From Spinacia oleracea (Eukaryota > Streptophyta > Magnoliopsida > Caryophyllales > Amaranthaceae), in NCBI RefSeq assembly GCF_020520425.1, contig NC_079491.1:38802027-38866026 (forward strand): a stretch of DNA of 64,000 nt, in the 5' to 3' direction. Of this stretch, positions 7,601 to 48,030 are shown piece after piece. A program made the translations under genes and the position numbers. Position 1 is the stretch's first letter, and the number at the start of each line of letters is the position of its first letter. Below the pieces are notes generated by a model. It had not been told where the DNA came from and made no database searches. It saw nothing but the letters and a program-made list of their open reading frames with translations.

Positions 7601-9355
7601 ATTGAGTTCCTTTGAGATGTTCACAGTGACTTCCACTTATATAGTGCATGTGAGTTGATTCGTTGATATGATCCATTATATTTGGAAGGAACTTACCCGT
7701 AGGTGGAACTGGAACTAGTATACATCTTAAGTTCCAATGTTCCGAGCCTGAGTTCCTCTTCACTGTTCCAACGAATCTAATGGATTTTCAACTCATTTTT
7801 TCTTGGTGTAATTCTGATGTTGTTCCTTTACTTCATACACACACTCAATCATGAGTTATAAACCTGTAAAAATAATTTTGCTTCTACTACCTTCCAAAAT
7901 CATGCATTAGTAGTAAATATATTTAGGTAGCATAATTTAGAAGATTAAAGTATACAAAAATTGTATACTAACAGACCTGTAAACAATTCATGGTCTTGGG
8001 AACCTGACATAATTTCAGTTCCTTTCTTTTTAGTAGTAGCATCTTAGAAAATGATTATTTTAAACTGCTAGATCTAAGATTTAACATGCATACATATAAT
8101 AAATATTCAATATACTCATAATACATGGAAAAACCGTTCTTTGGACAATAAATGATATAACATTAAATTATCCAGCCCAAAGAATAAAGTTCCCTTCGCA
8201 GGGAAACCAAGTTCCAACTTCCAAGGGTGGATATATACATTGTTCCTTTGTCTTGTTCCTTGAACCATTCTTATTAAGCGAATAATGCATGAATGTAAAA
8301 TCAGTTTTAGAATCTGAAATTTGTCTCACAAAAACATATTTGAGAAAATCCAAAATCGATTAAACAAATTCAAAATACATTTGAATAATTTTCATAAAAC
8401 GTTGTCAGGAACTTGAGTTTAAATAAATAGCGTATGCATATAAAGATCTCAAAAATTAGATGTTTACCTTAACTGTATCATTAAGGATCTTTTCATTGCA
8501 GCCTTTGTCTGTTCCTTGGAATGGTGCTGAAATGAGTTCCTTTATTCGAAAGTTCCTCTTCGGATTTTGATCCTTGTTCCGATGTGTGGAGCTGATGTAA
8601 TGTATTTTTATAATGTCGCACCTTTCGTGAGTTCCTAAGTATAACTCGTGGGTCAACAATGATCCAGCGAGTTCCTCAATATAGAACTTAGATTCACAGG
8701 AACTCTGACATATTAATGTGCACCTTTGTTTGTTCCTGTACCAATTTCTTTGTCGAGGGAACCCAACAGATTTGGGTCCCTTCTTGTTAGTAGTAACTGT
8801 TAAGAAAATAATCAACACAACAACTACTACCAAGATACAATATGCCTTCATATAAATGAGATTCAATATATTCATGAAGCATATAATATTTCTTAGGCAG
8901 AGAAAAATAAGTAGGATATTTTGTTGCCTAAAAATTAAAAACTCCGAGTTCCACAGATATGCATTTTTCAAGATACGTTTCCTTGAAATAATTTTAATGT
9001 ACTGAATTTTAAAAAATAAATTGAAAAATCATTTATTAAATATAGATTTTAGATTTTTCAAATTCAATTTTAAATCAAAACAAAACAGAAGTTCCATTAG
9101 AAACAATGCAATGAACACGCAATAAATTAATGTATGCACACAAAGAAGGTCTAAAGGAATAGATATTTACCTTAGAAGATCGCCTGTTACACCTTGACTG
9201 ACTTCTATTCAACAATAAAAGTCAGATCTGCTTTGTTCCTTTGAATGGGTAGGATCGAGTTCCTTTCATCAAGTTTCTTGTAATTGTTCCTCCTTCCAGG
9301 AACTTAACTCAGCAGGGTTTCCTGCTTATCAGCGAGTTTCGGCTCTGATACCAAT
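4631..9355 (-). other. Internal region of LARD-like element, no gag-pol
   Basis: No retroelement protein is recognisable in 4.7 kb on either strand. The longest frame is 171 codons on the minus strand at 8456-8971, with no familiar motif. GTTCC and GGAAC pentamers recur throughout. A diffuse duplication of roughly 0.7 kb is visible towards the right: the block at about 8020-8470, with 'agtagtagcatcttagaaaatgat' type sequence and a closing 'tttacctta', recurs in altered form at about 8780-9175. Position 4631 onward (attccccctttttgatgatg) is the complement of the polypurine tract that primes plus-strand DNA synthesis. Confidence 0.75.
9341..9353 (-). promoter_or_regulatory. Primer-binding site, tRNA-iMet type (LARD)
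   Basis: On the minus strand it reads TGGTATCAGAGCC, the classical plant site complementary to the 3' end of initiator tRNA-Met. It is two bases from the LTR that starts at 9356 and fixes the element's orientation. Confidence 0.93.
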
Positions 9356-15803: not shown

Positions 15804-15816
15804 GGCTCTGATACCA
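15804..15816 (-). promoter_or_regulatory. Primer-binding site, tRNA-iMet type (split Copia)
   Basis: Minus-strand TGGTATCAGAGCC, one base from the LTR that begins at 15818. It primes minus-strand cDNA synthesis from initiator tRNA-Met. Confidence 0.93.
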
Positions 15817-42884: not shown

Positions 42885-43222
42885 CCTCAAGCCTCAAGCA
42901 GCGCCTAAGTAATGCTAAGCTACCTTTCCGTTAAAAAATATATATTACTATTATTACACTAGCAAATTATGAAAACTCCCGGCTCTACAGAACGAAATCC
43001 TAATAATTACCATATGAAACTTGTTGGAAATCCTAGTGAGAAAACAAAAAAAATGAGTGGGAAAATGTGGGAATATGAAAAGTCCCACATGGGAAAAACA
43101 CAAACCATATTCAATGTTTATATTTGGGGTTTTGAGGGAAACATTTGTTTAAGAAAGCATGTGAGTGGCATGGGTGGTCACAACACACACACGCGCGCGC
43201 GCGTCGGGCCGGGCTCGGGCGA

Positions 43223-43495
43223 GGGCCGTGGGCCGTGGGCCGTGGGCCTTGGGCCTTGGGCCTTGGGCCTTGGGCCTTGGGCCTTGGGCCTTGGTACTTG
43301 GTACTTGGTACTTGGTACTTGGTACTTGGTACTTGGTACTTGGTACTTGGTACTTGGTACTTGGTACTTGGTACTTGGTACTTGGTACTTGGTACTTGGT
43401 ACTTGGTACTTGGTACTTGGTACTTGGTACTTGGTACTTGGTACTTGGTACTTGGTACTTGGTACTTGGTACTTGGTACTTGGTACTTGGTACTT
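43223..43495. repeat. Heptanucleotide array: (GGGCCGT)3 (GGGCCTT)7 (GGTACTT)29
   Basis: 39 uninterrupted heptamers in three blocks. The second LTR has only 1+3+1 units at the same place. The 34-unit difference (238 bp), less a one-base difference in an A run, accounts exactly for the 237-bp LTR length difference. Because three heptamers make 21 bases, all frames stay open and read as a GTWYLVL repeat; this is not a gene. Confidence 0.97.
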
Positions 43496-43913
43496 GGCGA
43501 ATGCGGTTCGCGGGCGTGGGGTGGGTTTTGTGGGCCGGGTTATTCTTTTTGATCAAGGGCGGTTTGATTAAATCAGAAGACTTAATCAACCCACTAACTT
43601 TGGAAACTGCTCCATTAATCACGTCATTACTCCCCACTAGCCGTTTTATGACTGTTGCAGTTCCCCATTACTCCCGTAACTTCTCCACTAGCCGTTTTTT
43701 GCTGTTACAGCTTCCCAAAAGCCTCACTATAAATTCATCGTTCATTTCCACAAAAATATACAGAAACTTACAATCGATCTCTCTCTCAAATTCCTCTCTT
43801 TCTGGGCAAATATTCTGGTCTCCAATCGGGGATTGTGAGTGCACATAATTCTCGGTGTCGTGTAAACCCTGGAGGGCAACCGCAAGCGTTCTACTGCATC
43901 GGAGGTAGCGCGA

Positions 43914-43927
43914 AATTGTCTTTTAGA
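43914..43927 (+). other. LTR segment complementary to the primer-site position
   Basis: AATTGTCTTTTAGA in the LTR is the exact reverse complement of TCTAAAAGACAATT at 44017-44030. The second LTR has the same 14 bases. See the finding on possible self-priming. Confidence 0.85.
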
Positions 43928-44016
43928 GCAGTGGTCCGGCCACGGCACGACAATTGTTTCAGTTCGTATTACGCAATATCCAGTTAAGTCGTTCCAATTA
44001 CTTATTTAGCTAACAA

Positions 44017-44030
44017 TCTAAAAGACAATT
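44017..44030 (+). promoter_or_regulatory. Candidate primer-binding site, self-complementary
   Basis: TCTAAAAGACAATT begins one base after the LTR end, where a primer-binding site must lie, and only 9 bases before the gag start codon. It does not match the tRNA-iMet site seen in the two other Copia-type elements here. Confidence 0.45.
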
Positions 44031-44038
44031 ATTCTGTT

Positions 44039-46489
44039 ATGGCTATGAATATGTCGAAATTTCTTATTCCTGATATGTCGAAATTGGAGCCTCTTGATGG
44101 GAAAAACTATAAACGTTGGGCTGTTAGGATGAGATTTTATTTGGAGCAAATTGATGTTGCGTATGTTATTTCTGATGTTGTGAAACCTGTTAATGATGAT
44201 GAATTGCATGATTTTGAGGTTAAGTTTGCTAAGGATGATAGAACCTGTAAGGGAATGCTATTGCATCATATGTCGAATGTTTTGCTTGACATTTACATGG
44301 GCTATAATCATGCTAGGGATATTTGGGATGGTTTAGAGAAAAAGTATGGAACTGATGATGCCGGTACGAAACGTTATTGTGTTAGTAAATGGTTAGGTTT
44401 TCAAGTTGAAGATGATAAACCTATTATTGATCAGATTCATGCATATGAGAATATCTGTATTGCTATGGCTGCCGAGGGTTTGAGTATATGTGATATAACT
44501 CTTGCTATTGTTTTAATTGAGAAACTGCCACCCTCATGGAAAGACTTTAGAAACCAGTTAATGCATAAGAAGAAAGACCTTACCCTAGAGGAACTCGTAG
44601 GTCACCTAAAAATTGAGGAGGAGAACCGTATTAAGGATAAGGGTCAATTTGTATTTTCTGGGTCTGCTAAAGCTAATCTGGTTGAACCTAGGGGCAATTT
44701 CTATTCTGATAAGTTTAAGGGGAAGGGCAGTCAGTTCAAGCCTCAAGGGAAAATTCAGAAGTATAAGTTTAAGGGTAACTGTTTCGAATGTGGGAAGGCT
44801 GGTCACAAGTCCAGGGATTGCAGGGTCAAGAAGAAGCCAGATCAGAATCAAGCTCACCTTGTTGAAGTAGTTGCTGATCCTAACAATTTTATTGCTGTTG
44901 TTTCAGAAGCTAATCTGGCAGGTGATGTTGCTGAGTGGATAGTTGATACAGGAGCAACCAGGCACATTTGCACCAACAAAGAAATGTTCACTTCCTACGA
45001 GAAGACTGATGGTGAAAATGTATTCATGGGTAACTCTGCTTCTGCAACTGTTCAAGGCAAAGGGAAGATCGTTCTCACTCTCACTTCTGGAAAAACACTC
45101 ACTTTAACTAATGTTTTGCATGTCCCAGAAATGCGTAGGAATTTAATTTCCGGTAGTTTACTTATGAAAGCTGGTTTGAAGTTGTCCTTTGATTCTGATT
45201 GGCTAGTTATTACTCACAATGGGGAATTTGTGGGAAAGGGTTTTTGTAATGGGGGGTTGTTTACTCTTGATGTTTCCATTGAAATTATGAATAAGAAAGC
45301 TAGTACTCCTTCTGCTTATATTGCTGAGTCTATTGATTTATGGCATGCTAGATTGGGTCATGTTAATATTGCTTCAATTAAAAGACTCAAACAAATGAAC
45401 ATGATTCCAAGCTTTTCTAAAACTGATTTTGCAAAATGTGAAGTATGTGTTGAAGCAAAATTTGCAAAGAAACCCTTTAAATCAATAGATAGACAGACAG
45501 AAGTACTAGAACTTGTTCATAGTGACTTGGGGGATTTTAAAAACTATGAAAGCAGGGGCGGTAAAAGATACTACATTACTTTTGTTGATGACTGCTCTAG
45601 ATTCACCATGGTTTATCTTCTCAGGTCTAAGGATGAGGCTGAGGAGATGTTCCTCAAGTACAAGGCTGAAGTTGAAAACCAGCTAGACAGGAAAATCAAG
45701 AGACTTAGGAGTGATAGGGGGGGTGAGTATGACCCTAACACTCTTAAGGCGTTTTGTGAACAGAATGGTATAGTTCACGAAACAACAGCTCCTTACACAC
45801 CCGAACAAAACGGGATTGCTGAAAGGAAAAATAGAACTTTAAAAAATATGATGAATTCAATGCTTATTAGTTCTGGGCTTCCTGATAATATGTGGGGGGA
45901 AGCTATTCTTTCTGCTTGTCATGTTTTGAACAGGGTGCCTCACAAGAAGCTGGACAAGACCCCATATGAGCTATGGAAAGGTCGAGCACCAAGCCTGAAA
46001 TACTTGAAAGTGTGGGGGTGCTTAGCAAAGGTTGCCTTACCTAGTTTCAAAAGAAACAAGATTGGTCCCAAAACGGTTGATTCTATCTTTATTGGTTATG
46101 CTTATCAAAGTTCTGCTTATCGTTTTTTAGTTAAAGGTGCTAACAACTCTTATGCAAGTGGTAACATTATTGAAGCAAGAGATGCTGAGTTTTTTGAAAA
46201 CACTTTTCCTTTAAAGATCTCTTGCATTAGTAATGATGTACCATCCTCTAGCACCTCTAATGCTTTACCCATTGCTCCTTGTTCCACTACTAATAATGAG
46301 TCTGATTTAGAACCAAGGAGAAGCAAAAGGGCAAGAAAGGAAACAAGTTATGGTGATGATTTTGTTACTGCTTTCCTAACTGAACCTTTCTTGATTACTG
46401 ATGATTTTGTGTATGTATTTATCCTAGAAGACGACCCTAGAACCTATGAAGAGGCAATGAGGTCGGTTGATGCAGTTTTCTGGAAATAG
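44039..46489 (+). CDS. Copia gag-protease-integrase polyprotein (to nonsense codon)
   Basis: 816 codons starting MAMNMSKFLIPDM. In order: the UBN2-type Gag domain (LDGKNYKRWAVRM near residue 18), a CCHC knuckle (CFECGKAGHKSRDC, about residue 247), the protease site (EWIVDTGATRHIC, about 300), the GAG-pre-integrase domain (LWHARLGHVNIASI, about 436), and the integrase core with HSD near 492, SDRGGEYD near 562 and NGIAERKNRT near 595. After the integrase comes the C-terminal VWGCLAKV...FIGYAY segment. The start is only 23 bases after the LTR, an unusually short leader. The frame ends at a TAG that replaces the conserved Glu codon in the motif FWKEAI; reverse transcriptase continues in the same frame. 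Gag, protease and integrase could still be made if the element is transcribed. Confidence 0.95.
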   Translation: MAMNMSKFLIPDMSKLEPLDGKNYKRWAVRMRFYLEQIDVAYVISDVVKPVNDDELHDFEVKFAKDDRTCKGMLLHHMSNVLLDIYMGYNHARDIWDGLEKKYGTDDAGTKRYCVSKWLGFQVEDDKPIIDQIHAYENICIAMAAEGLSICDITLAIVLIEKLPPSWKDFRNQLMHKKKDLTLEELVGHLKIEEENRIKDKGQFVFSGSAKANLVEPRGNFYSDKFKGKGSQFKPQGKIQKYKFKGNCFECGKAGHKSRDCRVKKKPDQNQAHLVEVVADPNNFIAVVSEANLAGDVAEWIVDTGATRHICTNKEMFTSYEKTDGENVFMGNSASATVQGKGKIVLTLTSGKTLTLTNVLHVPEMRRNLISGSLLMKAGLKLSFDSDWLVITHNGEFVGKGFCNGGLFTLDVSIEIMNKKASTPSAYIAESIDLWHARLGHVNIASIKRLKQMNMIPSFSKTDFAKCEVCVEAKFAKKPFKSIDRQTEVLELVHSDLGDFKNYESRGGKRYYITFVDDCSRFTMVYLLRSKDEAEEMFLKYKAEVENQLDRKIKRLRSDRGGEYDPNTLKAFCEQNGIVHETTAPYTPEQNGIAERKNRTLKNMMNSMLISSGLPDNMWGEAILSACHVLNRVPHKKLDKTPYELWKGRAPSLKYLKVWGCLAKVALPSFKRNKIGPKTVDSIFIGYAYQSSAYRFLVKGANNSYASGNIIEARDAEFFENTFPLKISCISNDVPSSSTSNALPIAPCSTTNNESDLEPRRSKRARKETSYGDDFVTAFLTEPFLITDDFVYVFILEDDPRTYEEAMRSVDAVFWK

Positions 46490-46957: not shown

Positions 46958-47239
46958 GCATCCAGGTTATGGACGTGTGGCCAGTATAATGCGTCACTTT
47001 TATTGGCGGAGATTCAGAATATCATACATGTTCAATTGTGTGCTTTGAGTAATGAGTTTCTTACCCCCTATTAAGTTCAATACGAAAGTCACTTGGTAGG
47101 AAAGAGATTCTAGCTTGAATGTCACTAAGTGTCAATTCAAGTCGCAAGACATTGACACCTATTCAATTGTTTGTTTTGCCCAGAAATTCAATTCTTTTAC
47201 TTCTTTCTTTTTCTTCTCATCTTCGGACCTGTGGGGGAT

Positions 47240-47996
47240 TGTTGGAAATCCTAGTGAGAAAACAAAAAAAAATGAGTGGGAAAATGTGTGAATATGAAAA
47301 GTCCCACATGGGAAAAACACAAACCATATTCAATGTTTATATTTGGGGTTTTGAGGGAAACATTTGTTTAAGAAAGCATGTGAGTGGCATGGGTGGTCAC
47401 AACACACACACGCGCGCGCGCGCCGGGCCGGGCTCGGGCGAGGGCCGTGGGCCTTGGGCCTTGGGCCTTGGTACTTGGCGAATGCAGTTCGCGGGCGTGG
47501 GGTGGGTTTTGTGGGCCGGGTTATTCTTTTTGGTCAAGGGCGGTTTGATTAAATCAGAAGACTTAATCAACCCACTAACTTTGGAAATTGCTCCATTAAT
47601 CACGTCATTACTCCCCACTAGCCGTTTTATGACTGTTGCAGTTCCCCATTACTCCCGTAACTTCTCCACTAGCCGTTTTTTGCTGTTACAGCTTCCCAAA
47701 AGCCTCACTATAAATTCATCGTTCATTTCCACAAAAATATACAGAAACTTACAATCGATCTCTCTCTCAAATTCCTCTCTTTCTGGACAAATATTCTGGT
47801 CTCCAATCGGGGATTGTGAGTGCACATAATTCTCGGTGTCGTGTAAACCCTGGAGGGCAACCGCAAGCGTTCTACTGCATCGGAGGTAGCGCGGAATTGT
47901 CTTTTAGAGCGGTGGTCCGGCCACGGCACGACAATTGTTTCAGTTCGTATTACGCAATATCCAGTTAAGTCGTTCCAATTACTTATTTAGCTAACA
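47240..47996 (+). repeat. 3' LTR of Copia, short heptamer form
   Basis: 757 bp with only five heptamers. Its TATA motif (47709-47715) points towards the trihelix gene, so read-out transcription would be antisense to that gene. Confidence 0.95.
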
Positions 47997-48030
47997 AAAC
48001 TAACCAAAAACAAAGACTTGGTATATATGA

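What the first reader, a model, noticed from the sequence alone, without database searches (positions are those of the whole stretch)
43914..44030. Copia element may prime reverse transcription from its own RNA
Seen: the 14 bases that start one nucleotide after the 5' LTR (TCTAAAAGACAATT, 44017-44030), exactly where a tRNA primer-binding site should be, are the perfect reverse complement of AATTGTCTTTTAGA inside the LTR (43914-43927; also in the 3' LTR). A 14-base match in a 1-kb LTR is far beyond chance. The geometry is right: the 3' end of the LTR segment would pair at the LTR edge and extend into U5. The two other elements with Met-type sites here use TGGTATCAGAGCC. Known: yeast Tf1 and relatives self-prime from the 5' end of their transcript. 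Weak point: the TATA-predicted start (about 43760) is some 155 nt upstream, so internal cleavage or another start would be needed.
Basis: partly seen in the sequence, partly recalled or inferred. Interest (0 to 1): 0.8.

Follow-up and report, generated by a model that had tools for sequence, protein, structure and literature searches.

The report
Self-priming site of plant Copia retrotransposon
A plant jumping gene appears to start copying its RNA into DNA with a piece of its own RNA instead of a cellular tRNA; this was already predicted for its probable lineage, but here the two matching sites also change together between families.

Summary
A Copia LTR element (LTRs 43022-44015, 47240-47996; TSD AAACT) has, one base after its 5' LTR, 14 nt (44017-44030) that are the exact complement of 43914-43927 in its LTR and not of a tRNA 3' end. 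Chance is excluded (0 of 5000 LTR shuffles). The pair is a family trait: 27 of the 30 fetched closest copies keep 14 of 14 pairs, 3 keep 13. A second family, identical at 188 of 286 positions here, has a compensatory T-A to C-G change in 9 of 12 fetched loci. A third, mostly non-coding group keeps the sites, partly with mismatches or wobbles. Self-priming is the best explanation. It is not new in kind: Neumann et al. 2019 (PMC6317226) predict self-priming for the TAR lineage of plant Ty1/copia, by a criterion this element meets. The primer lies inside the predicted transcript (186-206 nt from a TATA-like box in 11 of 12 copies), so it needs a cut, unlike Tf1's 5'-terminal primer. Against: one primer variant is uncompensated and primer-end changes are not copied into the PBS. 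The host-tRNA search did not complete; no RNA data exist.

The parts
43017..43021 (.). 5' target site duplication AAACT
43022..44015 (+). 5' LTR (994 bp, lengthened by a GGTACTT array)
   Evidence: 10 mismatches in 756 ungapped columns against the 3' LTR
43728..43734 (+). TATAAAT box; predicted transcript start near 43760
   Evidence: sequence; TATA-to-primer 186 nt; the start is inferred
43914..43927 (+). self-primer segment AATTGTCTTTTAGA (functional 3' end possibly 43926)
   Evidence: the 3' end is inferred from the uncompensated last base in family 2 and L066
44016..44017 (+). AT after the LTR's CA: one spacer base, or two if the primer ends at 43926
   Evidence: inference
44017..44030 (+). 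primer-binding site TCTAAAAGACAATT, complement of the self-primer
44039..46489 (+). open frame with gag, protease-like and integrase domains; stop TAG 46487-46489 (816 aa, against 1304 aa in the closest database relative)
47230..47239 (+). polypurine tract-like TGTGGGGGAT before the 3' LTR
   Evidence: sequence
47240..47996 (+). 3' LTR (757 bp)
47895..47908 (+). self-primer segment in the 3' LTR
47997..48001 (.). 3' target site duplication AAACT

Best explanation
This is an internally deleted copy of a Ty1/copia LTR retrotransposon, probably TAR lineage, whose minus-strand DNA is primed by its own RNA. In the transcript the R segment 43914-43927 pairs with the primer-binding site at 44017-44030. 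A cut next to 43926/43927 (in Tf1 the RNase H domain of the element's reverse transcriptase cuts an RNA duplex) exposes a 3' OH; reverse transcriptase extends it over U5 and the rest of R, and the short cDNA moves to R in the 3' LTR. Shown here: complementarity, position, conservation and one compensatory change. Inferred: pairing in the particle, the cut, a 13-bp functional helix, and strand transfer, which requires polyadenylation downstream of 47908.
For: Exact 14-nt complement at the PBS position; 0 of 5000 LTR shuffles match it. Genome: TCTAAAAGACAATT 437 times against 16 for the pattern read backwards; primer with R context 254 times against 0, exact 14-mer in 80 of the 100 places listed. 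Of the 30 loci fetched as best DNA matches (window copy included; 40 of 711 candidates were scored), 27 pair 14 of 14 and 3 pair 13 of 14. Second family: primer AATCGTCTTTTAGG, PBS TCTAAAAGACGATT in 9 of 12 fetched loci, while R-U5-PBS is identical to the window at 188 of 286 positions and integrase at 93%. A third group, with about 86% identity over 191 nt of R in one copy, keeps primer and PBS at another spacing. RNA folding: all 14 pairs in the window's optimum, mean pair probability 0.97. Published: TAR elements predicted to self-prime; criterion at least 10 bp starting 0-5 bp after the LTR (PMC6317226, passages). RNase H cut in Tf1: from a title in a reference list.
Against: The compensatory change is one evolutionary event. 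The primer variant TTTTAAA (5 of the 100 places listed, all on contig C2) faces an unchanged PBS in L062 and L064, the two of the five where a PBS was found; in L064 the other LTR still has TTTTAGA. Primer ends changed to G are not matched by C in the PBS (family 2; L066, whose LTRs are 99.6% identical, so it moved recently with 12 pairs and 2 wobbles). 10 of 38 paired rows are worse than 13 pairs plus one wobble. In 3 of 13 folded copies (L011, L066, L076, the last from family 2) the helix is absent from the optimum. The window fold as a whole is no more stable than shuffles (z -0.93). No transcript, cDNA or tRNA evidence.
Confidence: 0.8

Rival explanations
1. The element is primed by a host tRNA, most likely an internal or half-tRNA fragment, and the LTR complement is secondary.
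For: Half-tRNA priming is reported in Copia (Osser, Bryco, part of Gymco-II, Bianca; PMC6317226). The CTTTTA core resembles a Lys(UUU) anticodon loop (recalled).
Against: No TGG at the site start, so not a tRNA 3' end. A tRNA does not explain why the LTR segment matches 14 nt or why both sides changed together in family 2. Rfam shows nothing tRNA-like in 43000-44100.
Confidence: 0.07
2. The two segments pair in the RNA for folding, packaging or dimerisation, and something else primes.
For: Covariation shows pairing, not priming; the surrounding R sequence is conserved too.
Against: The paired site sits exactly where a PBS must be, directly after the LTR, and no tRNA-type site was seen there; the third group keeps it at a new spacing (about 140-155 against 99-105 nt).
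Confidence: 0.1
3. Chance or a local rearrangement in this one copy.
For: This copy is internally deleted (816 aa against 1304 aa).
Against: 27 of 30 nearest fetched copies have the full pair; 0 of 5000 shuffles match.
Confidence: 0.01

Closest known systems
TAR lineage of plant Ty1/copia (includes Houba and Osr-1; GyDB's Fourf), Neumann et al. 2019, PMC6317226 (abstract and passages seen)
   Same: Ty1/copia element; PBS predicted to be a self-primer from the 5' LTR; this element meets their numerical criterion
   Different: Their case is a prediction by sequence match; the passages seen contain no test of covariation. The lineage was not placed here by a tree.
Tf1/Sushi group self-priming (Tf1; Tj1, PMC4600332, passages seen; also PMC5445492, passages seen)
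   Same: Element RNA complementary to the PBS; RNA must be cut to make the primer
   Different: Tf1 is Ty3/gypsy and its PBS matches the first nucleotides of its mRNA; here the element is Copia and the segment is about 155 nt inside the predicted transcript
Half-tRNA-primed Copia (Osser, Bryco, Bianca; PMC6317226)
   Same: Copia elements without a complete tRNA 3'-end PBS
   Different: Primer is a tRNA fragment; here the complement lies in the element's own LTR

Membership tests
TAR lineage of Ty1/copia | Copia-type coding order: integrase before reverse transcriptase | tested here: met
   gag (LTR copia-type), protease-like and integrase domains fill the 816-aa frame with no RT before them; full-length relatives carry PF07727 as well (that this is the RT model is recalled)
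TAR lineage of Ty1/copia | Self-primer: at least 10 bp complement in the 5' LTR to a stretch starting 0-5 bp after it | tested here: met
   14 bp starting 1 bp after the LTR; criterion
TAR lineage of Ty1/copia | Position in RT/RH/INT trees | not tested
Tf1/Sushi self-priming group | Ty3/gypsy chromovirus proteins | tested here: not met
   Copia-type gag and integrase domains
Tf1/Sushi self-priming group | Primer is the 5' terminus of the transcript | tested here: inconclusive
   TATA lies 186 nt upstream of the primer; no mapped transcript start
tRNA-Met-primed Copia | TGGTATCAGAGC-type PBS after the 5' LTR | tested here: not met
   PBS is TCTAAAAGACAATT
Half-tRNA-primed Copia | PBS complementary to an internal tRNA segment | not tested
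   tRNA searches of the genome did not complete

The most novel reading that the evidence does not exclude
Plant Copia self-primers are internal R segments freed by a cut about 170 nt into the transcript, so the first cDNA lacks the 5' part of R, which is restored by transfer to the 3' LTR. Primer and PBS stay matched partly because the primer is copied into the PBS, which would make the C-G pair of family 2 a record of a past self-primed cycle. Mostly non-coding relatives that keep R, primer and PBS use the machinery of their coding kin.
Probability: 0.35. Interest if true: 0.55.

Novelty: new member of a known kind. Interest (0 to 1): 0.37.

Why it matters
Self-priming in plant Copia elements rests, in the passages seen here, on sequence matches. 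A compensatory change between two multi-copy families adds evolutionary evidence and names a host, families and exact bases for a direct test. Searches for primer-binding sites that rely on tRNA libraries will miss such elements.

Tried and rejected
Alternative hairpin: 43914-43920 can also pair with GACAATT at 43950-43956, which suggested a switch; several relatives do not keep it (for example GATAATC in L008, GAAAAAT in L006), so it was dropped.

Close-family covariation: 20 loci (18 of the 20 variant places among the 100 listed, plus 2 exact partners) showed decay, not compensation; in several no PBS follows. In one search, 5 of 43 rows (one of two L002 rows, L005, L067, L068, L075) were set aside because what follows the LTR there does not resemble a PBS (taken to be 3' or solo LTRs; inference). 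Of the remaining 38, 24 pair 14 of 14, 4 pair 13 plus one wobble, 10 are worse. Near-identical rows had been merged.

A claim withdrawn on checking: I had called the third group free of coding similarity from the first 2.3-2.7 kb after its PBS. Reading on showed a broken RT/RNase H remnant near the 3' LTR of one copy (L099, 62 of 120 proteins match, about 41% identity to P0001); 3 of 4 copies show no match over 5.2-5.9 kb.

Other sources: IMG/VR held no relative of the frame and no match to the primer context; plasmid records none for the LTR; a text search for the 14-mers gave no relevant paper.

L014 (LTR with part of R deleted, TATA 28 nt before the primer) looked like a natural Tf1-like case, but no second LTR was found in the 5.5 kb fetched beside it (1 kb between was not fetched), so it may be a deletion after insertion.

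More families: tblastn with an Arabidopsis relative listed 36 places, all with frames of family 2's length (not fetched except where one search had listed them). Searches with a rice relative (P0118) and an almond relative (P0089) and the tRNA searches did not complete.

Full report
What is there. The window carries a Ty1/copia element with LTRs 43022-44015 and 47240-47996 and TSD AAACT. The LTRs differ at 10 of 756 ungapped columns; the 5' LTR is longer because of a GGTACTT array. The frame from 44039 encodes gag, protease-like and integrase domains and stops at 46487-46489 after 816 aa, whereas the closest database relative (89% identical) has 1304 aa. Only 750 nt separate the stop from the 3' LTR, so this copy has lost part of its RT/RNase H region (inference from length). 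The genome is an 894-Mb assembly, probably spinach (recalled from genome size, not tested).

The observation. The 14 nt at 44017-44030, one base after the LTR, are the exact reverse complement of 43914-43927 and 47895-47908. Shuffling the LTR gave no such match in 5000 tries (longest 13), and 0 of 8401 control 25-mers reached 14. The site has no TGG, so it is not a tRNA 3'-end complement. The two tRNA-Met-type sites in the window show no self-complement of 8 or more.

It is a family trait. The PBS 14-mer occurs 437 times in the genome, against 16 for the pattern read backwards. The primer with its R context (GGTAGCGC N16 GC NN TGGTYC) occurs 254 times, against 0; 80 of the 100 places listed carry the exact 14-mer, 20 a variant. 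Among the 30 loci fetched as most similar in DNA (window copy included), 27 pair at 14 of 14 and 3 at 13 of 14. The 17 pairs fetched were chosen because both exact 14-mers were present, so they show range, not frequency: primer-to-PBS distances of 99-104 nt in 15 and 154-155 nt in 2, the latter with quite different U5 ends.

Covariation. A protein search with a Vitis relative reached a second family with a 1315-codon frame. Its primer is AATCGTCTTTTAGG and its PBS TCTAAAAGACGATT: position 4 has changed from T-A to C-G on both sides, and the last position is a G.T wobble. Of 12 loci fetched, 9 have both sites; L078 and L080 keep the changed PBS but show no primer, the LTR being deleted there, and L085, which belongs to the window's family, lost both. 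Between the two families R-U5-PBS is identical at 188 of 286 aligned positions, gag at 87% and integrase at 93%. This is one event, so good but not overwhelming evidence. If the primer is copied into the PBS during plus-strand synthesis, as tRNA bases are in other elements (established knowledge), a single primer mutation would produce such a double change; that is inference.

A third, mostly non-coding group. Four copies with spacing of about 144-155 nt were read further. In one (L095) R is 86% identical to the window over 191 nt. Two (L011, L012) pair 14 of 14, but were chosen for that; L062 pairs 13 of 14 and L066 12 plus two wobbles. None of the 120 listed relatives matches the first 2.3-2.7 kb after the PBS in any of the four, where gag would lie. 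Further on, 3 of the 4 still show no match, but one (L099, near the 3' LTR of the L066 element) has a broken RT/RNase H remnant, about 41% identical to P0001. As a positive control, 116-120 of the 120 proteins match each of four coding loci of the other families. So these look like non-autonomous descendants of a related element that kept R, primer and PBS. The whole R segment is conserved, so the primer is not singled out by this comparison.

Results against. The variant TTTTAAA (5 of 100 places) faces an unchanged PBS in both cases where a PBS was found, L062 and L064; in L064 the other LTR has TTTTAGA, so there the change came after insertion. L066/L067 have TTTTAGG in both LTRs, which are 99.6% identical, and a T, not C, in the PBS: a copy that moved recently with an imperfect duplex. 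With family 2 this suggests that the last base is not part of the functional primer, giving a 13-bp helix (43914-43926 with 44018-44030) and a two-base spacer AT; this is inference. Ten of 38 paired rows are worse than 13 pairs plus one wobble. In RNA folding, 10 of 13 copies have 11-14 of the pairs in the optimum; L011, L066 and the family-2 copy L076 have none. The fold of the window region is no more stable overall than shuffles (z -0.93; 16 of 100 shuffles fold at least as well).

Mechanism. A TATA-like box was called in 12 of 13 copies (not in L022; the one in L076 is a loose TTTAAAT); it lies 186-206 nt before the primer in 11 and 28 nt in L014, whose R is partly deleted. So, unlike Tf1, whose PBS matches the first nucleotides of its mRNA (PMC5445492; PMC4600332), the primer is internal. 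One cut after 43926/43927 would give a 5' fragment of about 168 nt that primes; the cDNA would then cover 44016 back to 43928 and could transfer to the 3' LTR only if transcripts end beyond 47908. None of this has been measured.

Relation to known work. Neumann et al. 2019 (PMC6317226; abstract and passages seen) surveyed 5410 Ty1/copia and 8453 Ty3/gypsy plant elements, predict self-priming for 12% of elements, assign it among Ty1/copia to the TAR lineage, and cite an earlier proposal for Houba and Osr-1. TAR elements are reported in spinach (PMC6337768, passages seen). The element meets the self-primer criterion; its TAR membership was not tested by phylogeny. So the finding is a well-supported member of a known kind, with new comparative support. 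My literature searches listed no paper whose title or abstract start concerns covariation of plant Copia self-primers; only open-access papers are held and most listed papers were not opened.

Noticed in passing
43290-43500 against 47470-47480: A GGTACTT array in U3 makes the 5' LTR 237 bp longer than the 3' LTR of the same element (994 against 757 bp), so it changes length fast.
   Followed up: partly
G000 C3:23378386-23398267; L097: The second family forms tandem arrays: four frames 5332, 5332 and 5339 bases apart, and in L097 an LTR followed directly by another PBS and gag start.
   Followed up: partly
L089, L090, L093, L095 with L098-L101: LTR group sharing R, primer and PBS with the window element but mostly non-coding; one copy (L099) holds a broken RT/RNase H remnant. 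Internal regions match each other only over the first 100-260 bases, plus 119 bases between L090 and L095.
   Followed up: partly
L014 (G000 C1:62600500-62601800): LTR with part of R deleted, so that TATA lies 28 nt before the self-primer, close to a Tf1-like layout.
   Followed up: partly
9342-9353 and 15805-15816, minus strand: Two tRNA-Met-type primer-binding sites of other elements.
   Followed up: no
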